From an uncultured Granulicatella sp. (GTDB taxonomy: Bacteria > Bacillota > Bacilli > Lactobacillales > Aerococcaceae): DNA of 10,588 nt. Under the pieces are notes generated by a model that had not been told where the DNA came from, searched no databases, and saw nothing but the letters and a program-made list of their open reading frames with translations. Below are positions 1 through 10,588 of this stretch, piece after piece. The translations under genes were made by a program, and so were the position numbers. The stretch is from positions 1-10,588 of the forward strand of contig CALATC010000218.1 in assembly GCA_937891475.1 (NCBI GenBank), written 5' to 3'. Position 1 is the first letter of the stretch. The number at the start of each line of letters is the position of its first letter.

Positions 1-82
1 GAAAGAACCAGCCAAATATGATATAATATAATTTATCGATTTGACCATAACAAAATTAGATAATTTGTTCAATTAAGGAAAA

Positions 83-625
83 ATGACAAAAAAAAGACAA
101 ACAAATAGTGTTACCAATATCAAGGAAGCATTAATAGAACTCTTACTTGAAAAAGAGTATTCAAAAATTACTATTAGCAATATAACTCAAAGAGCTAATA
201 TTAGCAGGGGAACATTTTATCAACATTTTCTTGATAAAAACGACCTTGCATACACCATTGGAAATGAGACTTTACAAAAGTTTTGGAACATTCTAGCAAG
301 AGAGAATTTAGAAAAAAAGAATATGCTTTTAGAAGCATTGAAGTGTATAGAGCTAGATTTTAAACATTTTAAAGCAATATCACAAGCACCCCATGTACAA
401 TTCAAATCTAAAGTACAACAATTAATAAGTGACATAGTGGATAGTAACCCAATCATAAAAAATAAAATTAAACAAAATACCAAAATCTCTGATAAAATTA
501 TTATTGAAGTTTTTTCAGCATCAGTTGAAACTATTATTTCTTCATGGATTGCTAGTGATTTAGCAGAAAGTCCAGATAAGGTTGTGGATAACATAATAAA
601 AGTTGAACAACTTTTTTGGAAATGA
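83..625 (+). CDS. TetR/AcrR-family transcriptional regulator
   Basis: A 180-residue protein, the usual TetR-family size. Residues about 12-55 form the TetR_N DNA-binding domain: a helix with KEALIELLLEKEY, then the helix-turn-helix ITISNITQRANISRGTFYQHF and the typical DKNDL that follows it. The remaining ~120 residues are a helical ligand/dimer domain with no recognisable ligand signature. The ATG at 83 is the first possible start, since an in-frame TAA lies at 74-76. An AAGGA at 75-79 is only 3 nt away, shorter than ideal. Two overlapping TATAAT hexamers at 22-32 could be a -10; the -35 would fall at or outside the window edge. The regulated gene is not visible; such genes often repress a neighbouring efflux or transport operon, here presumably left of the window. 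The AT-rich composition and lack of Tn916 similarity mark it as flanking DNA. The family call is secure, the target unknown. Confidence 0.88.
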   Translation: MTKKRQTNSVTNIKEALIELLLEKEYSKITISNITQRANISRGTFYQHFLDKNDLAYTIGNETLQKFWNILARENLEKKNMLLEALKCIELDFKHFKAISQAPHVQFKSKVQQLISDIVDSNPIIKNKIKQNTKISDKIIIEVFSASVETIISSWIASDLAESPDKVVDNIIKVEQLFWK

Positions 626-681
626 AACCGACATTTTTGAATTTTAGGAGGGTAGGGATACCTTAAACATCAAGGATATTA

Positions 682-701
682 TTGGTAGCTTTTTGGTAGC
701 T
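682..701 (+). repeat. Two direct copies of TTGGTAGCT, 11-nt period
   Basis: TTGGTAGCT occurs at 682-690 and 693-701, separated by TT. Short tandem repeats with an 11-nt period resemble integrase arm-binding sites near attachment sites of phages and ICEs. No integrase gene or core site is visible here, so this is only a description of the repeat. Confidence 0.4.
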
Positions 702-739
702 AAACATACAAAATATATTACTTCTGCCAAATTGGACAT

Positions 740-771
740 AAAAAGAATGTTGAACTATCAGCATTCTTTTT
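740..771. terminator. Strong intrinsic terminator, probably bidirectional
   Basis: AAAAAGAATGTTGA at 740-753 pairs with TCAGCATTCTTTTT at 758-771 (14 bp with one G-T wobble, loop ACTA), with A-rich and T-rich ends on both strands. It lies about 115 bp after the tetR-like stop and could end that transcript or transcripts coming leftward through orf21. Confidence 0.75.
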
Positions 772-793
772 TATTTCAAATAGTTTCTCGGAA

Positions 794-847
794 TTAGATA
801 CGGGGGGTTAAGTGCTGGCGTGGCTATTGCCACACCAGCCAGCAAGA
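794..847 (-). other. oriT: Partial Tn916-type oriT (one side of the nick region only)
   Basis: Reading the minus strand downstream of orf21: an 11-bp hairpin (814-824 with 829-839, one G-T pair, loop AATA), then TTAACCCCCCGTATCTAA ending at 794. This is what I recall of the Tn916 oriT between orf21 and orf20, where the C-run is the left half of a GC-rich inverted repeat that should continue CAGGGGGG. The related ICEBs1 oriT has the same layout (C-run, CTAA, G-run) and is nicked within it by its MobT-type relaxase. Here the match stops after CTAA and AT-rich DNA follows, so the G-run and orf20 (relaxase) are missing. This half site alone should not form the cruciform. Confidence 0.72.
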
Positions 848-2233
848 TCAGTCCACACCTGCGACTTCCGCTTCGCACGTCGCCTGCGTGGACTGTCTGC
901 TGTTGGATAACTTTTTAATTTCCTCCAAGAAATCATATCCTTTTGGTACAAGGGGAGTATAAAACTCTGATATGACACTTGTTCCTACATCAACATAGCC
1001 ACGACCTTTGATTCGCTTTAAGAAGAAATCCTTTTGTACGTCACTGCCAAACATCATGCCATAGCCCATTTCAGACATACGACCTAAAGCCACTCTGAAA
1101 TTAAACTGATCACGGATTCCGTCGCCTAAATATTTTGCGTCTGGACGTTGACAAGCCAGTATTAGAAAGAAGCCAGCTTGACGACCTAACATGACAATCT
1201 GTTTCAGCTTATTCATAACTGCGGTGTTTTCTTTTGTTCCCAGCATTTCCATGAAAGCGACGTATTCATCAAAGATTAAGAAGTGTGCCGGGAGACCTAA
1301 GTAAGCATAATTTTTGCCAGTCTTATAGTTCTTCATCTGCTTCATTTCCTCACTACGTTTCATCATTTCTTCATAGAATGTTTCAATGCAAGAAAGCAAG
1401 TCTTCTTTTCTATAGTAGACATTTGCCATCACAGAACCTAAGTCCGCAAGGTCAGCATTTTTCGGGTCAAGAATATACAGTTTTGAATCTGTATGAAGCA
1501 AGGCTTCAATCAGTGTCAGTATAAAGTAAGTTTTACCGCCACCTGTACCACCAGCAATCAACATATGAGGGAGCTTATCATATTCCCACCATACGTTTTT
1601 CATTAAGCGAAGTTTACCATCTTTAGCTTCTACTTCATCAATAGAAATACGACTGGCTATGGTGTCATAGAGCAAAGTATATTCCACATAGGAATCCTTT
1701 AACTCTTTATCCGTCAGCTCACAGTACAAGCCACTCTCTAATTTCTTTTCCAAGTGTAAGAGTTGGTCTTGATATTTTCCCAGCGTGATTTCCACCCGTA
1801 TCTGTATCAAGCCATTTTTAAGTCGATAATACATTTTAGGGAAGTAGGTTATCTTTTCCTTTGTACGACCAGCACTATCTTTAAAGAAACCCTCTGTTTT
1901 GACCTGTTCAGATTCATACCACTTGTTTTCAAGTATCATCTTTGCCAGTTTTTGACGGTGGTAAAGTTGTTTAACCGTATCATAGCGAACCCGTTTGAAT
2001 ACAAACGCTACCAGCAAGCAGATAAGAATTGCGACACTGAAACTGATAATTAAATAGGGAATGTCAATCTTATCTGCTTGTGATAGGTTAAAATCCTGCC
2101 AGTTGATCTGCTGGATTGTCTTCACATGAAACAGTCCGACAACCAGCAGGAAAACAGGCAGGAGTGACGCTATCGTAAAATGAAAGACTAAATCTTTACC
2201 AGATGGGCGAATCCTTTTACCACGCTGTTTCAT
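848..2233 (-). CDS. orf21: FtsK/SpoIIIE-type conjugative coupling ATPase, Tn916 Orf21
   Basis: A 461-residue protein, full length for Tn916 Orf21. It is the predicted coupling protein that brings the relaxase-DNA complex to the type IV-like transfer channel and pumps DNA by ATP hydrolysis at the membrane. Two transmembrane segments are visible at about residues 17-37 and 58-80. The motor domain follows, with Walker A GGTGGGKT at 228-235 and Walker B FLIFDEY at 318-324 (Asp322, Glu323), then LACQRPDAKYLGDGIRDQF at 359-377, typical of FtsK/TcpA proteins. The start at 2233 has an AAAGGAG ribosome site about 9 nt upstream. It is the last gene of the orf24-23-22-21 string in this arm; in Tn916 the relaxase gene orf20 would follow beyond oriT, but that part is absent. 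Its partner relaxase must therefore come from elsewhere, perhaps from the other arm beyond the window. Identification is very secure. Confidence 0.96.
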   Translation of the reverse strand: MKQRGKRIRPSGKDLVFHFTIASLLPVFLLVVGLFHVKTIQQINWQDFNLSQADKIDIPYLIISFSVAILICLLVAFVFKRVRYDTVKQLYHRQKLAKMILENKWYESEQVKTEGFFKDSAGRTKEKITYFPKMYYRLKNGLIQIRVEITLGKYQDQLLHLEKKLESGLYCELTDKELKDSYVEYTLLYDTIASRISIDEVEAKDGKLRLMKNVWWEYDKLPHMLIAGGTGGGKTYFILTLIEALLHTDSKLYILDPKNADLADLGSVMANVYYRKEDLLSCIETFYEEMMKRSEEMKQMKNYKTGKNYAYLGLPAHFLIFDEYVAFMEMLGTKENTAVMNKLKQIVMLGRQAGFFLILACQRPDAKYLGDGIRDQFNFRVALGRMSEMGYGMMFGSDVQKDFFLKRIKGRGYVDVGTSVISEFYTPLVPKGYDFLEEIKKLSNSRQSTQATCEAEVAGVD

Positions 2234-2261
2234 GCGAAAAAGTCTCCTTTCTACCTAGCGA

Positions 2262-2648
2262 CTATTTGTCTTGTGTCGGTTCTTTCTTTGCTTGTGGTTG
2301 AGCTTTGAATGAACTAGAATCCTTTGTCAGCACAATATCGTCTGCCTTGATATACCAGTCAACATCTGCTCCTTGATAGGTGGCAGTAGCAACGGTGTCC
2401 GCAATGGGATTGATAAGTTCCACCCGTGCGTTATAATCAAACTCTTTCAAAGGCACGCTGGCAGGAATACTTACTTGAATCATGCGTCCTTGTCCTTTGG
2501 ATTTTAAGTCATAGGTACGTTCCTTGATTTCATCTGAAACCGACCCGTCTTCATTTTGGATTCTCACTTCACGACGTAGAGCAGAGAATTTCAATTCTCC
2601 AAAAGTCGTGTCTTTATCTAATACAATGCCATTTGCTAATCTCATCAT
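2262..2648 (-). CDS. orf22: DUF961 (YdcP-family) conjugative transposon protein, Tn916 Orf22
   Basis: A 128-residue protein, matching Tn916 Orf22 in length. The family accompanies the transfer genes of Tn916- and ICEBs1-type elements; its molecular role is not settled. The DUF961 pattern is visible: TFGELKF at about 15-21, an ERTYDL turn near 43-48, IQVSIPA near 57-63, ARVELINP near 75-82, then a C-terminal KADD and a charged low-complexity tail rich in Gln and Lys. It lies 15 bp after orf23 and 28 bp before orf21 in one operon. GAGAGG precedes two consecutive ATG codons (2648 and 2645), so the start could be one codon later. It shares several motifs with Orf23, which suggests old tandem duplication. 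Confidence 0.93.
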   Translation of the reverse strand: MMRLANGIVLDKDTTFGELKFSALRREVRIQNEDGSVSDEIKERTYDLKSKGQGRMIQVSIPASVPLKEFDYNARVELINPIADTVATATYQGADVDWYIKADDIVLTKDSSSFKAQPQAKKEPTQDK

Positions 2649-2663
2649 TTTTCCTCTCTTTCT

Positions 2664-2978
2664 TTATTCTTTTATCATGTCGTCAGCATGTAAAAGGTAA
2701 TTTGTAAAACCACGAGTGCCGATTTTGTAGCCCTCTGCGGTAATACGTGGATTGACTAACTTCACACGTTCCTCAAAGCCGAAATGTTTTTCGCCAGCTT
2801 CAGCAGGAAGCACCACCACAATATCATCTGCTCTTTGAACATCAGAATAGAGATTATAGCTTCTTGATAAGACAGTTAGCCGTCCGTTGATTCTTCGCTG
2901 AACGACTTTATCCTCGCCAGCAAATTCTAAATTGCCGAATGTTTTTTCCATGTTGGGAATCACAAATTTAAGTTCCAT
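2664..2978 (-). CDS. orf23: DUF961 (YdcP-family) conjugative transposon protein, Tn916 Orf23
   Basis: A 104-residue protein, matching Tn916 Orf23. Visible family motifs are TFGNLEF at about 13-19, SRSYNLYS near 38-45, IVVVLPAEAG near 53-62, ERVKLVNP near 70-77 and LLHADD near the C-terminus. The pattern TFGxLxF ... VxxPA ... RVxLxNP ... ADD is shared with Orf22, so the two are paralogues. An AAAGGATAGG ribosome site precedes the ATG at 2978, 22 bp after the stop of the small upstream ORF. It is one of the first genes entered by transcription across the joined ends in circular Tn916. Function is not established; no catalytic motif is visible. Confidence 0.93.
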   Translation of the reverse strand: MELKFVIPNMEKTFGNLEFAGEDKVVQRRINGRLTVLSRSYNLYSDVQRADDIVVVLPAEAGEKHFGFEERVKLVNPRITAEGYKIGTRGFTNYLLHADDMIKE

Positions 2979-3000
2979 ATTTTTACCTATCCTTTCTTTT

Positions 3001-3075
3001 TTATTGGCTGAATGAATGTTTGATGGTCTTAAAGAGTGGGGAACGACCTTTTGATTCTTGATTTTTTGTTTTCAT
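3001..3075 (-). CDS. 24-residue leader ORF upstream of orf23 (Orf24-like)
   Basis: On the minus strand GAAAGGAAG (plus 3083-3091) is followed 7 nt later by ATG at 3075. The frame encodes a basic 24-residue peptide beginning MKTKNQESKG and ending HSFSQ, stop TAA at 3001-3003. It ends 22 nt before orf23, has a better ribosome site than many longer ORFs here, and sits between the terminator at 3102-3134 and orf23. It may be a real leader peptide or simply a translational entry point. I believe it corresponds to the small first ORF of the Tn916 left end, but the symbol is uncertain. No domain is recognisable. Confidence 0.6.
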   Translation of the reverse strand: MKTKNQESKGRSPLFKTIKHSFSQ

Positions 3076-3101
3076 AAGTTCACTTCCTTTCAAAATCGGG
3101 T

Positions 3102-3134
3102 AAAAAAATAGACACCTCATTTTTTGAAGTGTCT
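3102..3134 (-). terminator. Intrinsic terminator or attenuator in the Tn916 left end
   Basis: On the minus strand AGACACTTCA (3134-3125) and TGAGGTGTCT (3119-3110) form a 10-bp stem with one G-U pair and an A-rich 5-nt loop, followed by A then seven T (3108-3102). It lies between the left terminus and the 24-codon ORF, so transcripts entering from the element end must pass it to reach orf23-orf21. Confidence 0.8.
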
Positions 3135-3219
3135 ACCTATTAAATATTCAAATTTTATTGGAAGTATCTTTATATCTTCACTTTTCAAGGATAAATCGTC
3201 GTATCAAAGCTCATTCATA

Positions 3220-3241
3220 AGTAGTAAATTAGTAGTAAATT
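3220..3241 (+). repeat. Tandem Int arm-type (DR-2-like) sites, Tn916 left end
   Basis: Two perfect adjacent copies of AGTAGTAAATT at 3220-3230 and 3231-3241. The same 11-mer, with a near copy, occurs near the right end at 5214-5235. In Tn916 the N-terminal domain of Int binds such direct repeats about 70-140 bp inside each terminus. Here they lie about 73 bp from the terminus. Confidence 0.85.
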
Positions 3242-3288
3242 GAGTGGTTTTGACCTTGATAAAGTGTGATAAGTCCAGTTTTTATGCG

Positions 3289-3314
3289 GATAACTAGATT
3301 TTTATGCTATTTTT
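3289..3314 (-). repeat. Tn916 left terminus (imperfect terminal inverted repeat)
   Basis: Read inward on the minus strand from 3314 (AAAAATAGCATAAAAATC...), these 26 bases match the right terminus read inward from 5073 at 20 of 26 positions, the value I recall for the Tn916 ends. This sets the left boundary at about 3314, give or take the few bases of coupling sequence. Confidence 0.85.
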
Positions 3315-4561
3315 ATATTAAATATATCTAATAATTCCTCTCCGTATTGAAATGCAAATACTTCATATGGGCTCTTATTCCCAAGAGATTTTCTTGCATA
3401 TGAATTTATATGACTCATCATAATATCTATATCTTTTTGTGTATATTTTCCAAAATCGACACCCTTAGGTATTATACGACGAATAAATTCGTGGTTGTTT
3501 TCACAGTTAGGCTTTTGAAAAGGAGCGTTTGCATCGCAATAAAAAACCCTGGAGCGAAGTTTGCCTTCCTTATCAAATTCGATTGCAGTAGGATTTGAAA
3601 ATTCACTTCCATTATCTGCTAACAAAATTGGAAATAGGTCAGAATAGGCATCAGAACCCAATTTAGAGTACAGATTGTTAAATATGTCCGTAACCGATTT
3701 TGAGTCGTTAGACTCTCTTAAAAATGCAAGTTGTAGTTCCTGTTTTACAAAGTGTATAGTAAGCAATACAGGACCACCCTTTATACCTATAACAGAATCT
3801 ATCTGTTGCGCTGGAAGGTCAGAATGATTACTCATATAGTCTTTATAATCCTTAAAAGTACGATTAATACGACAGGATTTATCTACCTTGAGTGGCCTAG
3901 TCTTAGACTTGCGAGGACGCATTCTAACTGTTCTTGGCATGTCTATATTCCTAGCAGAGAAAATCCCGTTATTTACATAAGAGTATAGAGTTCGTTCTGA
4001 CATCATGACCTCATCTTTGTGAAAGATAGATATATGATGAATAGATTGACCTTTAATGAGTAATGGAGAAACAATATTATCTAGATGTTTTATTTCCTCC
4101 TCAGAAAAAGCAAATCCACTGCGAGACTCACTTAGTAGAGTTTCATATTCCTTTTGAGCCGATAAGGCTTTATAGAAAGACTTTTCTAACGTGCAGTTGG
4201 TCTTAGATTCACAAGAATTACAAACATATGGTGGCTTTTTAAGCTTAGGACAAGTATATTTCTCATATAAACTGCATTTTTCATTACATATACCACAGGA
4301 CCAGCAAAGTCGTTTTCTATAGGTACACATCTTGCAAACATTACGTAGTGAGCATGAGCGATTAGCATTATGAAGACAGTCATTGAAAGACTTACTAAAA
4401 GCACCAGTCTTCTCATGTCTTATATGTGCACGAATTTCTTTTGAAATAGTAGTAGGGTCTTTATGAAGAATACGTGCAATCTTTCTAAAAGATGTTCCTT
4501 TACCTAATTCTATTTCTATTATATTTCTTGATTCAAGAGTTAAATGTTTTTGTGTGTTCAT
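3302..4561 (-). pseudogene. IS30-family transposase, 3' end cut off by Tn916 insertion
   Basis: The ATG at 4561 has a GAGGAGG site 8 nt upstream and is preferred over the in-frame TTG at 4585. Features in order: helix-turn-helix at about residues 7-43, a Cys-rich stretch with twelve cysteines at about 62-123 (probably zinc-binding), and an rve-type DDE core with Asp255 in QIDSVIG, Asp316 in LLADNGSEF and Glu354 in NCENNHEF. All catalytic residues are present. The last codons (I-A and the TAA at 3302-3304) lie inside the Tn916 left terminus, so native coding ends near Asn415. The missing 21 codons are found at 5004-5072, next to the Tn916 right terminus, giving a reconstructed protein of about 436 residues. 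The truncated protein keeps the catalytic core but lacks its C-terminal tail, and the IS has lost its adjacent right end, so independent movement is doubtful. Confidence 0.88.
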
Positions 4562-4580
4562 AATAATTTCCTCCTCATAA

Positions 4581-4599
4581 ATCAAGGTAATGCAACTAT
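4581..4599 (-). repeat. Left (upstream) inverted repeat of the IS30-type element
   Basis: Read inward on the minus strand from 4599: ATAGTTGCATTACCTTGAT. It aligns with the other IS end read inward from 4940 at 17 of 20 positions with one gap; the first 11 are identical. It lies 20 bp before the transposase start, as expected for an IS30 IRL. The exact outermost base is uncertain. Confidence 0.7.
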
Positions 4600-4939
4600 A
4601 AACTTATGATACATTTAAATTATGAACTAGTAAATTCCATATACAAATAAAGTGTATTTGGTAAAAGTAAATTCCATATCATGGGGGAATTTACTTTTAC
4701 AAGTAACAAAAATACAATAAAGGTGAATTGAAAAAGTAAATTCCACTTTGTAAGACTAAATTCTGTAATAGTAAAGCTCTTTAGAAAAAAATATAAAAAA
4801 GAGCTGACTTTTCGATAGAAAAGTATTAAAATATACATAAGAAACAAAGTTTTGGAAGCATTTTATGCATACTAATTAGGAGTCGGATTCACTTGTTTTT
4901 TTCGGAAATTGTAAATTCCACCCCTAGTGAAGATATATC
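4600..4939. repeat. 340-bp spacer with five copies of GTAAATTCC, one inverted
   Basis: No credible gene. GTAAATTCCA occurs in direct orientation at 4630-4639, 4667-4676, 4737-4746 (sharing GTAAATTCCA) and 4911-4920, and inverted (GGAATTTAC) at 4686-4694. A perfect 15-bp inverted repeat pairs 4661-4675 with 4686-4700 (10-nt spacer), and a perfect 13-bp repeat pairs 4686-4698 with 4732-4744. Weaker hairpins are AGCTCTTT/AAAGAGCT (4775-4782, 4798-4805) and ACTTTTC/GAAAAGT (4807-4813, 4818-4824). The repeats may be remnants of mobile-element ends or a small MITE-like element; IS30 elements are known to favour targets resembling IS ends, but these repeats do not match the IS ends described here. 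Confidence 0.65.
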
Positions 4940-4959
4940 ATAGTTGCATTTTCCATGAT
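4940..4959 (+). repeat. Right (downstream) inverted repeat of the IS30-type element
   Basis: Read inward on the plus strand: ATAGTTGCATTTTCCATGAT, partner of 4581-4599. It lies 44 bp beyond the transposase stop (minus strand). The two IS ends point away from each other across 340 bp, the reverse of an intact IS; their outer flanks show no clear matching target duplication. Confidence 0.7.
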
Positions 4960-4983
4960 CCTAATTGTACAATTTAATTGGAT

Positions 4984-5002
4984 AAAAACCGATTCCGGTT
5001 TT
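4984..5002 (-). terminator. Terminator after the IS30 transposase tail
   Basis: On the minus strand AAAACCG (5002-4996), loop GAAT, CGGTTTT (4991-4985) is a perfect 7-bp stem running into TTTTT, 1-2 nt after the TAA at 5004-5006. It would also stop transcripts leaving Tn916 through the int end. The short stem makes the strength uncertain. Confidence 0.55.
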
Positions 5003-5003
5003 G

Positions 5004-5072
5004 TTATTTATCTGCTTTTGAAAAAAGTTTTTCTGTTAACGTGATTTCATCAGCAGATATTTTTTTTAAATT
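5004..5072 (-). pseudogene. Detached 3' end of the same IS30-type transposase gene
   Basis: Read on the minus strand from the Tn916 right terminus, the frame gives N-L-K-K-I-S-A-D-E-I-T-L-T-E-K-L-F, then S-K-A-D-K and TAA at 5004-5006. This is the ordinary C-terminal ending of IS30 transposases (LFNIKKISxDEITLxxxL). The main gene at 3302-4561 ends in D-I-F-N at the Tn916 left terminus, so the two pieces join seamlessly as DIFN/LKKISADEI. A terminator follows at once and an IS end lies at 4940-4959. No start codon or ribosome site belongs to this piece. It is too short for ordinary gene finders and easily missed. Confidence 0.85.
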
Positions 5073-5098
5073 AAACAAAGTATAAATTTCTAATTATC
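5073..5098 (+). repeat. Tn916 right terminus (imperfect terminal inverted repeat)
   Basis: Read inward on the plus strand (AAACAAAGTATAAATTTC...), it matches the left terminus (3314 inward) at 20 of 26 positions. On the outer side the IS30 transposase tail begins at once, which independently supports the boundary near 5072/5073. Confidence 0.85.
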
Positions 5099-5213
5099 TT
5101 TTTATATTTTCTTAAATGCTCGTAAAGCCTTATTCTATGTGCTTTCGAGTATTTTTACTGTAGGAAGATACTTCACGTTTCTTTGCATATTTCCTCATGT
5201 CTTAGCTGTCAGA

Positions 5214-5235
5214 AGTGGTAAATAAGTAGTAAATT
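5214..5235 (+). repeat. Tandem Int arm-type (DR-2-like) sites, Tn916 right end
   Basis: AGTGGTAAATA at 5214-5224 is followed directly by AGTAGTAAATT at 5225-5235. The second is identical to the repeats at 3220-3241. They lie about 140 bp inside the right terminus and 12 bp after the int stop, as expected for Int arm-binding sites. Confidence 0.8.
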
Positions 5236-5246
5236 CATTTGTACTA

Positions 5247-6464
5247 CTAAGCAACAAGACGCTCCTGTTGCTTCTCTTTATTCAAGCGTTTCATTTCTGC
5301 CATTGCAGAATCGAATGTTGCATGTGCGTAATAGTTCAGCGTCATGGCTATATTAGCATGTCCCATAATGTACTGTAATGCCTTTGGATTCATTCCTGCA
5401 TTTGCATAGTTGGTACAGAATGTATGTCGCAAACTATGTGGAGTGATGTGTGGCAATTTATCCTCGTTATACTTATTGTATTTCTTAACAAGACCTTTCA
5501 TCATGCCGTTGTAATCACTTGCCACTTTTGGATAGTTCTTTCTATTAAGAAAGAGGAAATCACTATATCCATCAATCTCAACACGCTTATCATTCTTTCG
5601 ATTCGCTAACACTCGCTTAAATGCTTGATAGGCTTCTTCAACCATAGGAACTTGACGTTCGCCACTTTTGGTCTTTGGTGTTTCAATGTAGTACCCAATT
5701 TCAGTATCTCTCAATAGCTGATGGTCTATATTGACAAGACGATTCTCAAAATCTAAATCTGGAAGTGTCAAACCACCAAACTCTGAAATACGAAGACCTG
5801 TTTTTAAGAGTATCAGAATTTCATCATAATTTTTGCTGTAGGTTTTATCAGCTTTTGCAAAGGCTAACAGTTTTTCTTCCTGTTCTTCTGTTAGTACGGT
5901 CTTAGGGACAGTATCATCATCAAGAACTGCTTTCAGTTGAAAGTCAAATGGATTCTTCCGAACACAATCATCTTGTATAGCAATATAGAATGAAGCCTTT
6001 AAAGAACGTTTGTAGTTATTGATGGTTTGATAAGCATAACCATTTTCACTCATTCTAATAGCCCATTCTTTAGCGTCTGATGGCTTAATACTGTCAATAC
6101 TTCTTACACCTAACTTGTCTTTCTTCAAAATATCCATAAGATATTTGCGTCCAGTTTCAGTGTTTTTTCTAACCTTTGGTCTTTGAGCGTTCTGTTTTGC
6201 GTAAAGCTGGCAGAGTGTCATTTTCTTTCCTACAACATCAATACCATCATGAATGTCTTTCTGTAACTCTGCGATTTTCTCTCTAAGTGAGATACAATCA
6301 CGCTTTCCTGCTGGTACTCGGTCTGTAGCCACAAGTTTCCACGAGTAAACAAATTGCGGTTCTCCAAATGAATCTATATATTTGTATAAGTATCTTCCGT
6401 CTTTTCGTTGGCTCTCTCCAGTCTTTAAGATTCGACCTTTATTGTCACGTCTTTTTTCTGACAT
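5247..6464 (-). CDS. int: Tn916-type tyrosine integrase
   Basis: A 405-residue tyrosine recombinase that excises and integrates the element through the 3314 and 5073 termini. The N-terminal arm-binding domain (about 1-75) recognises the AGTAGTAAATT repeats; a SAM-like core-binding domain covers about 80-170; the catalytic domain follows. All active-site residues are seen: Arg225 in TGLRISE, His343 and Arg346 in HSLRH, His369 in MGHA and nucleophile Tyr379 in LNYYAH. The length and Tyr379 match Tn916 Int. The ATG at 6464 is preceded by an AAAGGAG site. It follows xis by 81 bp; a small inverted repeat (CTTTCC/GGAAAG) just before the ribosome site could modulate translation. The gene looks intact, so the failure of the two ends to be joined by a normal 6-bp coupling sequence is not explained by a damaged integrase. 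Confidence 0.97.
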   Translation of the reverse strand: MSEKRRDNKGRILKTGESQRKDGRYLYKYIDSFGEPQFVYSWKLVATDRVPAGKRDCISLREKIAELQKDIHDGIDVVGKKMTLCQLYAKQNAQRPKVRKNTETGRKYLMDILKKDKLGVRSIDSIKPSDAKEWAIRMSENGYAYQTINNYKRSLKASFYIAIQDDCVRKNPFDFQLKAVLDDDTVPKTVLTEEQEEKLLAFAKADKTYSKNYDEILILLKTGLRISEFGGLTLPDLDFENRLVNIDHQLLRDTEIGYYIETPKTKSGERQVPMVEEAYQAFKRVLANRKNDKRVEIDGYSDFLFLNRKNYPKVASDYNGMMKGLVKKYNKYNEDKLPHITPHSLRHTFCTNYANAGMNPKALQYIMGHANIAMTLNYYAHATFDSAMAEMKRLNKEKQQERLVA

Positions 6465-6545
6465 GGCATTTGCTCCTTTCCTTTATGGAAAGAGCCTTGA
6501 TACGACTTAATACTATTTTATCATATACAAGACCCTTTGGCGACG

Positions 6546-6749
6546 CTAGATTGCGTCCAATGTATCTATAATTTTTTCAAATTGTTTTCGTTTAATCTGA
6601 ATACGATTGCCATTCATAATCAGCCAATTTGCATTTTTATTTTCCTCTGCCAAGCGTCGTAGCTTGTTTTCGCCAATACGAAAATATTTTGACGCTTCTT
6701 CAATGGTTAGGGTATAACGTTCCCAAATAGGAATGTCAGTCTGCTTCAT
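6546..6749 (-). CDS. xis: Tn916-type excisionase
   Basis: A 67-residue winged-helix DNA-bending protein, full length for Tn916 Xis. It binds near the element ends and steers Int toward excision. The segment [23 protein letters not shown] (about 14-36) is the MerR-like recognition helix pair, followed by a short wing with [12 protein letters not shown] and a C-terminal helix. A strong AGGAGG (plus 6755-6760) lies 5 nt before the ATG at 6749, and a hairpin (6762-6780) abuts that site. It is followed by int with 81 bp between, so the two are co-transcribed. The long structured leader upstream (6750-7209) separates it from orf8. Confidence 0.96.
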
Positions 6750-6984
6750 AAAATCCTCCTTTCCAAATCACTTATTTGGATTTCATAAAAGTTGTTTTAC
6801 CAGCAATCGAACAGCTTTAGCAAAGCTCACGGGAGTTCCACCCCTGCATGGTTCTCATGTAGCCATACTCATTGCCTGCGACGGTTTTATCACGCTCGGA
6901 CTATTGACTGTATGGGAGTATCATTATCACGATAAGAATGTCGTTGCAGGCAATCCTGCTAAAGATTGCTTCTCGGATCACTAA
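6733..6984 (+). CDS. Doubtful 83-codon ORF antisense to the xis leader (Tn916 orf5 position)
   Basis: An open frame of 83 codons on the plus strand between xis and orf8, overlapping the first codons of xis. Older Tn916 maps list an ORF of this kind (orf5) here. Against a real gene: AGGA abuts the ATG with almost no spacing, no domain is recognisable, and the frame runs through inverted repeats (for example ATTGCCTGC/GCAGGCAAT) that explain the sequence better as structured leader RNA on the other strand. Kept only because it is a historical annotation. Confidence 0.2.
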
Positions 6985-7209
6985 CATGAATCGCTCGCTA
7001 TCTTTATAAGATAGGTCATGGCGGTTAGTTCCGTTGGCTCTTTTCTTATCGAAACGTATTCGATTACTTTTATTCAGTTTTCAAAGAACAATGGCTCGTT
7101 AGCCTATCAAAACACATTGAAAGCTCAATATGCTTTGGTGGAATAACAAACCTCCCTGTTCGGGAAGCGTGGAATGGTTTAGCACGCTTCCACGAAAGGA
7201 GAGAGGATA
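6750..7209 (-). promoter_or_regulatory. 460-bp structured leader between orf8 and xis
   Basis: No convincing gene. Inverted repeats: TCCAAAT/ATTTGGA at 6762-6768 and 6774-6780 beside the xis ribosome site; ATTGCCTGC/GCAGGCAAT at 6871-6879 and 6946-6954; CTATCTT/AAGATAG at 6998-7004 and 7008-7014; GGAAGCGTG/CACGCTTCC at 7163-7171 and 7183-7191 just after orf8. A boxA-like sequence lies at 7075-7090. In Tn916 this region carries transcripts from orf7-orf8 into xis-int; the structures suggest control by termination or antitermination, which is inference. Confidence 0.55.
7075..7090 (-). promoter_or_regulatory. boxA-like antitermination sequence in the xis-int leader
   Basis: The minus strand reads TGTTCTTTGAAAACTG. 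It resembles the boxA of rRNA operons (E. coli TGCTCTTTAACA; Firmicutes rRNA leaders and spacers have TTCTTTGAAAACT), bound by NusB-S10. It sits between the orf8-proximal hairpin and xis, where antitermination would help transcripts reach int and, in the circle, the transfer genes. Sequence resemblance only. Confidence 0.4.
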
Positions 7210-7440
7210 TTACTTAATTTCAAATGACAAAATCTTTGTAATCAGTCTGGTTTCCATTCTTCCACGTAAGACTTCATCAACGACCATACTTTGATTGCCA
7301 TATTCATCTTTCATAAGTCGTAGGGAACGCTTCGTTATGTACCCTCTGTAATGATGTAGAATCTGGTTAATCGCTTCGGTATCGCCATCTGTTGCCTTTA
7401 CAATGAGAGGAAAGGGAATCATAGGATATTGTGTTTTCAT
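7210..7440 (-). CDS. orf8: Tn916 Orf8, helix-turn-helix conjugative-transposon regulator
   Basis: A 76-residue protein of the HTH_16-like conjugative-transposon family, the same length as Tn916 Orf8. The helical segment PLIVKATDGDTEAINQILHHYRGYI (about 11-35) resembles the N-terminal region of sigma-like factors. Orf8 and Orf7 together therefore look like the split halves of one sigma-type activator, with Orf7 carrying the region-4-like end. Its ATG overlaps the orf7 stop (ATGA, 7437-7440), so translation is coupled and the two are likely made in equal amounts. In Tn916 orf7-orf8 products raise transcription of their own operon and through xis-int. The gene is intact. Confidence 0.93.
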   Translation of the reverse strand: MKTQYPMIPFPLIVKATDGDTEAINQILHHYRGYITKRSLRLMKDEYGNQSMVVDEVLRGRMETRLITKILSFEIK

Positions 7441-7859
7441 TCTTCAAATTCCTCCATAAACTTTTTAATTAAGGCTAGTCCACTGGTTCTATGCCGATAG
7501 ACAGTAGAACGGTTCAATTTCAACAGGTCTGCAATTTCTGAATCGCTCATGTCCATAAAGTAAAACAGCAGTAGAATTTCACGTTTCTTGTCTGGCAACT
7601 CACGTAATGCTTCACTCAACAAATCATTTTCAACGCCTACTGATAACCCATTGAGTGTAAAAATCTGAAAGTCAGTTGAATAGTTATCTGTTGTCGCAAA
7701 CTGGCTAACAAGATAATCGCCAACATCCGAAAAGGACACCTCACGCTTTGCAATCCTTGAAAGATAAAGCATATAATTCTTTCGCTCGTCTTCCATAGCA
7801 CGTTTACAGATATAGTCAAACTGATTTTCTATTGTGGTCTGAAAAGAAGATGGTTTCAT
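7437..7859 (-). CDS. orf7: Tn916 Orf7, sigma-70 region-4-like regulator
   Basis: A 140-residue protein from the ATG at 7859. A longer frame can start at the GTG at 7868, but that would overlap the GGGGGTGAG ribosome site, which is well placed for 7859; 140 residues is also the Tn916 length. The C-terminal third is sigma region 4-like: LRELPDKKREILLLFYF at about 86-101, then helix-turn-helix MSDSEIADLLKLNRSTVYRHR at 103-123. It probably binds -35-type DNA or contacts RNA polymerase to activate Tn916 transcription. It is translationally coupled to orf8 by an ATGA overlap. A terminator (7995-8036) upstream separates it from tet(M)-side transcripts, consistent with conditional readthrough. Confidence 0.93.
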   Translation of the reverse strand: MKPSSFQTTIENQFDYICKRAMEDERKNYMLYLSRIAKREVSFSDVGDYLVSQFATTDNYSTDFQIFTLNGLSVGVENDLLSEALRELPDKKREILLLFYFMDMSDSEIADLLKLNRSTVYRHRTSGLALIKKFMEEFEE

Positions 7860-7994
7860 GTTTCTCACCCCCTTTCTGTCTAGGAAAGGAAGTGAGCCTT
7901 GCTCGTTTATCTCCTTTCACTCTTAGTCCCAATGTGAAAGGGGGATTTGTTGCATTACTGATAAATAAACTTTGTAAAAAAGTTCTGAATAGCC

Positions 7995-8036
7995 AAAAAA
8001 GCATATAAACAGATTTATTTCTCTGTTTACATGCTT
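7995..8036 (-). terminator. Intrinsic terminator upstream of orf7
   Basis: On the minus strand AAGCATGTAAACAGA (8036-8022) pairs with TCTGTTTATATGCTT (8013-7999), 15 bp with one G-U pair and an 8-nt loop, running into TTTTTT (8000-7995). It blocks transcripts coming from tet(M) before orf7. It fits the established idea that the recombination genes are reached only by readthrough. Confidence 0.85.
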
Positions 8037-8223
8037 CTGTTATTCTATCTATATGATTTATAAAACCACATTGGTGGACGTACTTATCTATTGCAGATAG
8101 ACGACTTTTTTTGACAAGAACCCAATGTAAGGAAATTTATTGTATATGATGTACTTCATGGCGACGTTGACCTCCAACAAACCGCCATTTGGAAGTAATA
8201 TACAATATTTTAACAGCGTAAAT

Positions 8224-8274
8224 AGCACTACCATATAACGGTTTTTTTTATTGGCGTTTAGTAGTGCTTTTTAT
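8224..8274 (+). terminator. Hairpin with T-run upstream of orf9
   Basis: AGCACTAC (8224-8231) pairs with GTAGTGCT (8261-8268), with an inner TAACG/CGTTA-like pairing across a T-rich loop, followed by TTTTTATT. It reads as a plus-strand terminator ahead of orf9; on the minus strand the T-run is weak. Confidence 0.5.
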
Positions 8275-8363
8275 TAAATATAAACCTATAAACCATATAA
8301 CACGTTTTTCTATACCTGTTTTTAATTCAGTAGGAACAATAAAATGTATAGAGGTGGTCTACT

Positions 8364-8717
8364 ATGCGTAAAAAAGAAGATAAATATGATTTTAGAGCCT
8401 TTGGTTTAGCCATTAAAGAAGCTCGATTGAAACGAGGTTTAACTCGTGAACAAGTGGGAGCATTGATTGAAATTGACCCACGGTACTTAACTAATATTGA
8501 AAATAAAGGGCAACACCCCAGCATACAAGTTCTTTATGACCTTGTATCGTTACTTCATGTTTCCGTTGATGAATTTTTCTTACCTGCTAATAACTTGGTA
8601 AAAAGCACCCGACGATTACAGATAGAGAAATACATGGATAGCTTTACAGACAAAGAACTATCCTTAATGGAATCTTTAGCCAGCGGTATCAACGAAGCAA
8701 GAAACATCGAAGACTAA
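8364..8717 (+). CDS. orf9: Tn916 Orf9, XRE-family repressor
   Basis: A 117-residue protein, matching Tn916 Orf9. An XRE/Cro-C1 helix-turn-helix domain covers about residues 11-67: [26 protein letters not shown] followed by [16 protein letters not shown], with typical hydrophobic spacing and a DEFF end. The C-terminal 45 residues are charged and helical, perhaps for dimerisation. The ATG at 8364 has GAGGTGG at 8351-8357. It runs opposite to all other element genes and faces the orf7 promoter region; in Tn916 it is held to repress orf7-orf8 transcription, relieved when tetracycline-induced transcription runs antisense across it. Its end converges on the KTR gene with a shared terminator between them. 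The gene is intact. Confidence 0.94.
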
Positions 8718-8742
8718 TTAAAAGAATCCATACATAACGGAA

Positions 8743-8787
8743 AGAGCCGATAAAATGAGATTGTATTAATCTCATTTTATCGGCTCT
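8743..8787. terminator. Perfect 20-bp hairpin between convergent orf9 and the KTR gene
   Basis: AGAGCCGATAAAATGAGATT (8743-8762) pairs perfectly with 8768-8787 around loop GTATT. The right arm contains the last two codons and the stop of the minus-strand KTR gene (8777-8779). It lies 25 bp after the orf9 stop and can act for both genes, although the following T-run is short on each strand (TTTCC on minus, none on plus). Confidence 0.75.
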
Positions 8788-8965
8788 GCGTCTTTGCGTC
8801 TGGCTCTGTAATCACAGTTACTTTGAACTGCTTTATTTCAATTAAATTTTCTTGTCTGCATTTCGGACAATAGAGGGGGAATTTTTTTAATTCAGTATCT
8901 TCCCTTATCTTTAATCGTGTTTTATTTCCACATACAGGACACAATATCCACTTGTAGTTTATAAT
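8777..8965 (-). CDS. orf6: Cysteine-rich KTR-domain zinc-ribbon protein downstream of tet(M) (Tn916 orf6 position)
   Basis: A small protein of about 61-62 residues on the minus strand that ordinary ATG-based ORF searches miss. It shows LCPVCGNKTRLKI near the start and LYCPKCRQENLIEI in the middle: two CPxC knuckles of a zinc ribbon plus the NKTR motif of the cysteine-rich KTR family, then VTVITEPDAKTQSR and TAA at 8777-8779. The frame has no ATG, GTG or TTG between an upstream stop and the conserved NYKW. The AGGAGG (plus 8974-8979) is 8 nt before ATT (8965) and 11 nt before ATA (8962); relatives start with Met at the ATA position as I recall. So either a rare ATT/ATA start is used or a start codon has mutated. 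It lies about 100 bp after tet(M) and is probably co-transcribed with it. Role unknown. Confidence 0.72.
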   Translation of the reverse strand: MINYKWILCPVCGNKTRLKIREDTELKKFPLYCPKCRQENLIEIKQFKVTVITEPDAKTQSR

Positions 8966-9062
8966 AACTATCTCCTCCTTTACACTTTAATTCAAATCTT
9001 TATTAAAAAATATTTCATCTTATTTAACAAGAAACCATATTTATATAACAACATAAAATACA

Positions 9063-10588
9063 CTAAGTTATTTTATTGAACATATATCGTACTTTATCTA
9101 TCCGACTATTTGGACGACGGGGCTGGCAAACAGGTTCACCGGTAGTAACATGGTACCCTTTTAACTCTGTTAAACAAACACTACGTCCATTTGTAAAGAA
9201 AGTTAAATCACTACGATATTCTTGAATACACCGAGCAGGGATTTCTCCACTAAGAATGACCTCATTATTTTTCAATTGAGTGTCTACGATGTTCGCACAA
9301 TATTTAGGAGCATCGTTGTATGCTCGTGAAAGATATTCCTGTGGCGCATAAATTTTAAAACTAAGATATGGCTCTAACAATTCTGTTCCAGCTTTTTTTA
9401 AGACTTGTTCCAATACAATAGGAGCAAGCATCCGAAAATCTGCTGGGGTACTAACAGGGCTATAGTATAAGCCATACTTAAAACAGATTTTACAGTCCGT
9501 CACATTCCAACCATATAATCCTTGTTCGCAACCATAGCGTATCCCTTCCATAACTGCATTTTGAAATGATTGATTTAAGTATCCAAGAGAAACCGAGCTC
9601 TCATACTGCATTCCACTTCCCAACGGAAGCGGTGATACAGATAAACCAATGGAAGCCCAGAAAGGATTTGGCGGCACTTCGATGTGAATGGTATATTCTG
9701 CATTTTTTAACGGTCTCTCCATATAAATGACTGTAGGCTCTTTTAGTTCTATCTCCACATGATACTTTTCTTGCAACAGTGCACTAATCACTTCCATTTG
9801 TACTTTCCCTAAGAAAGAAAGTATAATTTCATGTGTCGTAGAATCCACGTAATATCGTAGAAGCGGATCACTATCTGAGATTTCCAAAAGGGCATCAAGC
9901 AACATTTCTCTCTGTTCAGGTTTACTCGGTTCAACAGTTGTTTGTAGTAGAGGGTGCGGATTTTCAATCTTTTTTCTCTGTGGCAATAGTTTTGTATCTC
10001 CAAGAACACTATTTAACTTCAAAAACTCATTTTGCAAAATAACAATTTCTCCAGAATAAGCTCTATCAATCTTACATAATTCACCATTTATTGAAGTATA
10101 CATTTCTGTAACTTTTATTTTTTCTTTTTCTGATACTCTAACCGAATCTCGTAAATGTAGTACTCCACTATAAAGGCGTATATATGCAAGACGTTGTCTT
10201 TTTTTTGTATATTCAATTTTGAAAACATTTCCGCAAAGTTCAGACGGACCTCGATGTGTTGATGAATAAAATTTATTCGTAATCACTTCTATAAGGTTAT
10301 CAATCCCTATATTGTTTTTTGCACTTCCGTGATAAACAGGGAACAGGGAACAATTATGAAATCTTATGCTTTCCTCTTGTTCGAGTTCCAATGCTTCTAA
10401 TGATTTACCGGACATATATTTCTCTAAAAGGTCATCGTTTCCCTCTATTACCGTATCCCATTGTTCAGATTCGGTAAAGTTCGTCACACACATATTAGGA
10501 TACAGTTCTACCTTCTGTTTGATTACAATTTCGGCAGAAAGTTTCTCTTTAATATCCTGATAAACCGTTGATAAATCAATTCCATTTT
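9063..10588 (-). CDS. tet(M): Tetracycline resistance ribosomal protection protein Tet(M), 5' part outside the window
   Basis: An EF-G-like GTPase that binds tetracycline-stalled ribosomes and displaces the drug. The frame is open from the window edge and includes the 31 residues before the internal Met at 10493 (beginning [12 protein letters not shown]), so the apparent ATG at 10493 is not the start. The window holds residues 133-639 of 639: the G domain is cut just after the NKID motif, and domains II-V are complete. The numbering is confirmed by the domain IV loop Tyr506-Tyr507-Ser508-Pro509 in [13 protein letters not shown], whose residues contact 16S rRNA at the drug site. The TAG at 9063-9065 gives the usual C-terminus VRYMFNKIT. 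No frameshift or stop is seen. In Tn916 its transcription is controlled by attenuation in a leader that lies beyond the window. The KTR gene follows without a terminator. Confidence 0.98.

What the first reader, a model, noticed from the sequence alone, without database searches (positions are those of the whole stretch)
3290..5098. Facing Tn916 ends joined by an inside-out IS30: signature of a circularised or tandemly repeated Tn916::IS30 unit
Seen: the right terminus (5073) and left terminus (3314) face each other, as in circular or tandem Tn916. Instead of a ~6-bp coupling sequence there are 1.76 kb holding an IS30 gene cut in two. The 415-codon 5' piece touches the left terminus and the 21-codon 3' piece touches the right terminus, and they join in frame as DIFN/LKKISADEI. 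A single Tn916 insertion into an IS30 would give exactly these flanks, but on the outside of one element; here they are connected to each other through a 340-bp spacer. Inference: a unit of spacer + IS30::Tn916 was circularised, or duplicated in tandem, by a route other than Int-mediated att joining. Such a unit could move the IS and spacer as passengers of Tn916.
Basis: partly seen in the sequence, partly recalled or inferred. Interest (0 to 1): 0.78.

Follow-up and report, generated by a model that had tools for sequence, protein, structure and literature searches.

The report
Tn916 inside a self-joined IS30
A tetracycline-resistance conjugative element sits inside an insertion sequence whose two ends are joined to each other as in a transposition circle, so it may be able to move by the insertion sequence's machinery as well as its own.

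Summary
In detail: the Tn916 right end (5073) and left end (3313) face each other across a split IS30 gene. But the "340-bp spacer" is not extra DNA. It is the IS30's own two noncoding ends, joined tip to tip across 13 bp (4709-4721).

A model of the IS tip, trained on relatives only, ranks these two tips first and second of 21,128 positions, and of gaps 0-30 only 13 fits. Nine of 17 relative copies show 13-bp target duplications, so gap equals duplication length. E. coli IS30 circles show the same equality, 2 bp and 2 bp. This is an IRR-IRL junction, the mark of an IS30 circle or tandem dimer, with Tn916 as passenger.

The break of the left Tn916 part at 794 lies in the nic loop of oriT. Bases 679-793 resemble an end found at two other loci with other neighbours, so an integrative element probably sits in oriT and no truncated second Tn916 is needed.

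One circle of IS30 + Tn916 + oriT insert explains everything seen. A chromosomal tandem or an assembly chimera is not excluded. Verdict: a new variant of known kinds.

The parts
1..793 (.). Not Tn916: probable end of an integrative element seated in the oriT nic loop; holds a TetR-type gene (83-625, +). Bases 679-793 are the conserved end.
   Evidence: Tn916 likeness stops at 794; break in the nic hairpin loop; the same end at two other loci, 77% over 679-811 in L034 and by eye in L038; TetR_N domain
794..3313 (-). Tn916 left end: half of oriT, orf21 (848-2233), orf22 (2262-2648), orf23 (2664-2978), left terminus
   Evidence: 99.92% to pCF10; orf21-23 proteins identical
3314..4708 (-). IS30 5' part: left tip at 4708, 147 bp noncoding, transposase gene from the ATG at 4561 (TTG 4585) cut by Tn916
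   Evidence: HTH_38 domain; agrees with P0001; tip by model
4684..4708 (-). IRL, left terminal repeat of IS30 (terminus 4708)
   Evidence: second-best of 21,128 positions, 18.2 bits
4709..4721 (.). 13-bp gap between the two IS30 tips
   Evidence: only fitting gap among 0-30; equals the target duplication of relatives
4722..4746 (+). IRR, right terminal repeat of IS30 (terminus 4722)
   Evidence: best of 21,128 positions, 30.7 bits
4722..5072 (-). IS30 3' part: noncoding end and the 3' gene piece (5004-5072)
   Evidence: 3' piece agrees with the last 20 residues of P0001
5073..10588 (-). Tn916 right end: int (5247-6464), xis (6546-6749), regulatory genes, tet(M) (9063 to the window's end, incomplete)
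   Evidence: 99.96% to pCF10; Int and Xis identical; Int domains

Best explanation
The window is a stretch of a circular (or tandemly repeated) molecule: one IS30-family element with a Tn916 inside its transposase gene, whose IS30 tips have been joined to each other by IS30-type transposase action. One tip is cut and attacks the flank 13 nt outside the other tip; copying then gives IRR-13 bp-IRL. Shown: Tn916 lies in one kind of IS30; the tips face each other across exactly one target-duplication length; the Tn916 part on the left stops in the oriT nic loop at what looks like another element's end. Inferred: that the transposase made the joint (supplied by an intact copy or by the cut gene); that the molecule is a circle with one Tn916; that Tn916's own replication could maintain such a circle. 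The order is open: Tn916 may have entered a seated IS30 that later circularised, or an IS30 minicircle may itself have been Tn916's target.
For: Tip model from relatives finds both tips, first and second of 21,128 positions, gap 13 only, 0 of 500 resamplings; 13-bp duplications at 9 of 17 relative copies in 5 genomes; IS30 length about 1,740 bp fits relatives; both gene pieces agree with one intact protein; in E. coli IS30 the joint gap and the duplication are both 2 bp (PMC9333248 introduction), in ISCth4 6-8 and 8 bp (PMC7780238 passages); the oriT break is explained without a second Tn916.
Against: No read-level or whole-molecule evidence; own assembly not held. Known IS30 gaps and duplications are 2 bp, not 13. 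The IRL score (18.2) is well below the IRR score (30.7), though inside the left-one-out range of true tips (8.1-22.8). Eight of the 17 relative copies do not show a clean 13-bp duplication (4 none, 1 of 12 bases shifted by one, 3 cut by contig ends). No plain circle of this IS30 was seen. No joint promoter above chance: 3 promoter-like sites against 3.4 in shuffles.
Confidence: 0.62

Rival explanations
1. Stable tandem in a chromosome or plasmid: two or more IS30::Tn916 units side by side sharing one 13-bp target copy, made by homologous recombination or by IS30 dimer formation, not a free circle.
For: Gives the same local sequence. IS30 dimers are a known product (PMC9333248).
Against: Needs two Tn916 at the same base of two IS30 copies; the window shows nothing that requires a second copy, since the break at 794 is explained otherwise. 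Not excluded.
Confidence: 0.22
2. Assembly chimera: plain IS30 circles or dimers exist in the sample (so the tip joint is real), and the assembler passed wrongly from a seated IS30::Tn916 into them.
For: Intact copies of this IS30 are common (470 member sequences); the 351-bp 3' part and the 1.4-kb 5' part are repeats that short reads may not span.
Against: Assemblers usually stop at such forks; the path comes back to Tn916 on both sides. Not tested: no reads and no assembly held.
Confidence: 0.13
3. One reading: a separate 340-bp segment circularised or duplicated together with IS30::Tn916.
For: Same order of parts.
Against: The tips lie inside that segment and relatives carry noncoding ends of like length: about 210 + 265 bp in G382 against 147 + 282 bp here.
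Confidence: 0.03

Closest known systems
IS30 minicircle and (IS30)2 dimer, E. coli (PMC9333248; outline, passages and first part of the introduction seen)
   Same: IRR-IRL joint with a gap equal to the target duplication
   Different: Gap 13 bp, not 2; the element carries a conjugative element; transposase gene cut near its 3' end
Tn916 / Tn925 in pCF10
   Same: Both end regions nearly identical, Int and Xis identical
   Different: The ends are joined through an IS30, not through a short coupling sequence; oriT is interrupted
IME_oriT elements in oriT of Tn916-type ICEs (PMC7563843; outline, passages and figure legends seen)
   Same: Break in the nic hairpin of Tn916; they are known there in 16 Tn916-related ICEs
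   Different: No direct comparison with published members; TetR cargo; integrase and relaxase not in the window
ISApl1-based Tn6330 and its circles (PMC6349718, PMC5821093; listings only)
   Same: IS30-family ends circularise resistance DNA
   Different: There IS copies flank the cargo (abstract); here one IS is split around a conjugative element

Membership tests
Tn916 family | Int, Xis and both termini of Tn916 | tested here: met
Tn916 family | Complete conjugation module and MobT relaxase | not testable with these tools
   outside the window; own assembly not held
Tn916 family | 6-bp flanks at the ends, as after Int-mediated insertion (rule recalled) | tested here: met
   6-bp variable stretch at each end against 3 + 3 other ends; the two differ by one base
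IS30 family | IS30-type transposase | tested here: met
   HTH_38, relatives named IS30 family transposase. Pfam gave no catalytic-domain hit at 1e-3; acidic motifs were placed by eye
IS30 family | Terminal inverted repeats | tested here: met
IS30 family | Short (2-bp) target duplication as in E. coli IS30 | tested here: not met
   relatives show 13 bp at 9 of 17 copies; the window copy has no outer flanks to test. This sets the group apart within the family
IS30 circle or dimer joint | IRR and IRL facing, gap equal to the target duplication | tested here: met
   gap 13, duplication 13
IS30 circle or dimer joint | Free circle or dimer shown as a molecule | not testable with these tools
   no reads, no assembly
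IME_oriT | Seated in the nic hairpin of a MobT-type oriT | tested here: met
   break in the CT'AA loop
IME_oriT | Own integrase, Rep_trans relaxase, direct repeats at both ends | not testable with these tools
   other end and these genes lie outside the window

The most novel reading that the evidence does not exclude
A hybrid mobile unit: an IS30-type circle that, by hosting Tn916, gains replication and conjugation, while Tn916 gains a second, transposase-driven way to integrate with 13-bp duplications, and an oriT-seated element rides along. It would belong to a clostridial IS30 group whose circle gap and target duplication are both 13 bp.
Probability: 0.3. Interest if true: 0.72.

Novelty: new variant of a known kind. 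Interest (0 to 1): 0.5.

Why it matters
E. coli IS30 minicircles are described as non-replicable (PMC9333248), while the relaxase of Tn916 also starts autonomous replication after excision (PMC9371924 passages). Put together, an insertion-sequence circle would have a means to persist, and a common resistance element would have an exit and entry route that does not use its own integrase. The equality of 13-bp gap and 13-bp duplication, in a group far from E. coli IS30, also makes testable the idea that one geometric feature of the transposase sets both numbers.

Tried and rejected
Foreign spacer: rejected, the IS30 tips lie inside it. Truncated second Tn916 on the left: not needed, since the break is at the nic loop and the adjoining 115 bp recur elsewhere. 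A relaxase-made joint at nic was considered; it is less likely for the same reason, but not tested. G001 as host: dropped; it is only the nearest genome held by shared words, and none of 159 genomes of its family had this IS30 at E 1e-100.

Led nowhere: viral-contig scans for the IS30, the TetR gene and short window pieces (no relative). TetR in 398 genomes of the phylum, 0 at 1e-30 (a sample, without a positive control). TetR against plasmids, 6 records, all under 60% identity. Pattern of the element end in 398 genomes, 0. IS30 region against plasmids, 141 records, none covering 80%; the 20 listed match only the Tn916 left end. Promoters at the joint, not above chance. Streptococcus plasmid matches L035 (37 bp) and L037 (43 bp) were fetched but L037 was not aligned.

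Rows against the 13-bp rule, of 17 loci: L010, L023, L024 and L026 show no duplication at the tips; L028 shows 12 bases shifted by one; L025, L029 and L030 are cut by contig ends. In L008, L012 and L020 the match runs to 14. In one search the L008 left tip was read in a wrong register because its repeat occurs twice; corrected. The model used one of the near-identical G382 copies (L017) plus L008, L009, L012 and L027; the other 4 positive copies were left out, all from G382.

Mended: IS30 noncoding lengths, the L. petauri likeness (it runs on into a nic-like half hairpin), 'shuffles' named as Markov resamplings. Odds were given in full only in this filing.

Full report
What was checked. The two Tn916 ends are real and face each other. 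Against the Tn916-like element of pCF10, window 794-3322 matches at 99.92% and 5064-10588 at 99.96%. Beside three other left ends and three other right ends, the last shared base is 3313 on the left and 5073 on the right, each followed by a variable 6-bp flank. The two flanks differ from each other by one base. That fits an ordinary Tn916 insertion, in which one flank is target and the other is carried coupling sequence (rule recalled, from no call). Int, Xis, Orf9 and Orf21-23 are identical to those of pCF10; the part of tet(M) in the window differs at one base.

The split gene. The frame 4585-3302 (minus) is an IS30-type transposase with an HTH_38 domain; no catalytic-domain family was hit at 1e-3. 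The protein search (7,999 candidates scored) gave P0001, 444 aa, a cluster of 470 member sequences. The 5' piece differs from it at 2 of 425 residues. The 3' piece, read alone, agrees with its last 20 residues. Both pieces therefore belong to one kind of IS30 gene, which also exists intact.

The spacer is IS30 itself. Relatives were taken from whole genomes: 1 of 1, 8 of 299 at 1e-60, 2 of 25 at 1e-110, 6 of 397 at 1e-130. In G382, near-identical copies share about 1,770 bp, with about 210 bp before the gene and 265 bp after it. Of 17 loci examined, 9 from 5 genomes have 13-bp direct repeats just outside imperfect terminal repeats. Of the other 8, 4 show none at the tips, 1 has 12 bases shifted by one, and 3 are cut by contig ends.

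The tip model. A 25-position model of the tip, from 10 tips of 5 elements and without the window, was run over 21,128 positions. The best two were 4722 (+), 30.7 bits, and 4708 (-), 18.2 bits; the third was 11.8. Left-out tips scored 8.1 to 22.8. Within 4561-5003, gaps of 0 to 30 between facing tips were tried and only 13 scored above zero; 0 of 500 first-order Markov resamplings reached that score. The plain repeat finder lists the same inverted pair (I3). So the IS30 is 3314-4708 plus 4722-5072, joined tip to tip through 13 bp.

What such a joint means. In E. [quoted passage not shown] Copying gives a circle or dimer with repeats 2 bp apart, and insertion makes 2-bp duplications (PMC9333248, first part of the introduction). 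In ISCth4 (IS256 family, recalled) gaps of 6-8 and duplications of 8 were seen (PMC7780238, passages). Here both numbers are 13. That equality is the best argument for a transposition product rather than a random fusion. It holds whatever the exact register, since moving the tips would change both numbers together.

The left break. Bases 1-793 are not Tn916. The break lies in the loop of the hairpin that carries the nic of MobT-type oriTs; nic is CT'AA in a GC-rich hairpin loop (PMC9371924, passages). pCF10 and 3 of 3 viral contigs with this half hairpin have the ordinary other half. IMEs that integrate there are known: 53 of 64 described sit in ICE oriTs, 16 of them in ICEs close to Tn916 (PMC7563843, abstract and passages).

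Other copies of that end. The last 115 bases before the break recur in a Lactococcus petauri plasmid beside an HpaII-type restriction gene. The likeness there is 77% over 679-811: it runs on through a nic-like half hairpin that differs from Tn916's at 2 of 17 bases, and then stops. The end also recurs in viral contig L038, beside a 929-aa frame that looks by eye like a DNA methylase; there it stops at the same CGGAAT and is followed by other DNA with no nic. So 1-793 is probably the end of an integrative element, and the window needs only one Tn916. Kinship with the published IME_oriT set was not tested.

Circle, tandem or chimera. All rests on 10.6 kb, and the own assembly is not held. A circle of IS30 + Tn916 + inserted element is the most economical reading. 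A tandem needs Tn916 twice in the same place. A chimera needs real tip-to-tip reads plus a wrong path through IS30. The odds are judgement.

Host. Unknown. The nearest named IS30 source is Anaerotaenia torta, 68%. TetR is nearest to unnamed clusters (98 and 96%); among named sources the nearest is Lachnospiraceae bacterium oral taxon 096, 72%. On a mobile element, TetR says little about the host.

In print. Searches (open-access library) listed no title or abstract on Tn916 inside an IS30 joint, or on an IS30 group with 13-bp duplications. Most hits were seen as listings only, so this is a limited search. Papers opened: PMC9333248 (outline, passages, part of section 3), PMC7563843 (outline, passages, figure legends), PMC9371924, PMC5357655 and PMC7780238 (passages).

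Noticed in passing
   Followed up: partly
window 679-793; L034 12001-12133; L038 near 6520-6631 (-): A conserved element end of about 115 bp with a hairpin (AAAAAGAATGTTGA...TCAGCATTCTTTTT), next to restriction-type genes in the two other loci.
   Followed up: partly
window 4657-4676, 4726-4745, 4901-4920: Three copies of a 20-bp repeat ending in GTAAATTCCA within the noncoding ends of the IS30 (D1); they may be extra transposase-binding sites.
   Followed up: no
window 4985-5002: Terminator-like stem just past the end of the transposase gene (1 found, 0.1 expected).
   Followed up: no
G001 contig C27, 2202-24109: Tn916-like ends about 21.9 kb apart, against about 18 kb in G002, so that copy may carry an insert.
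   Followed up: no
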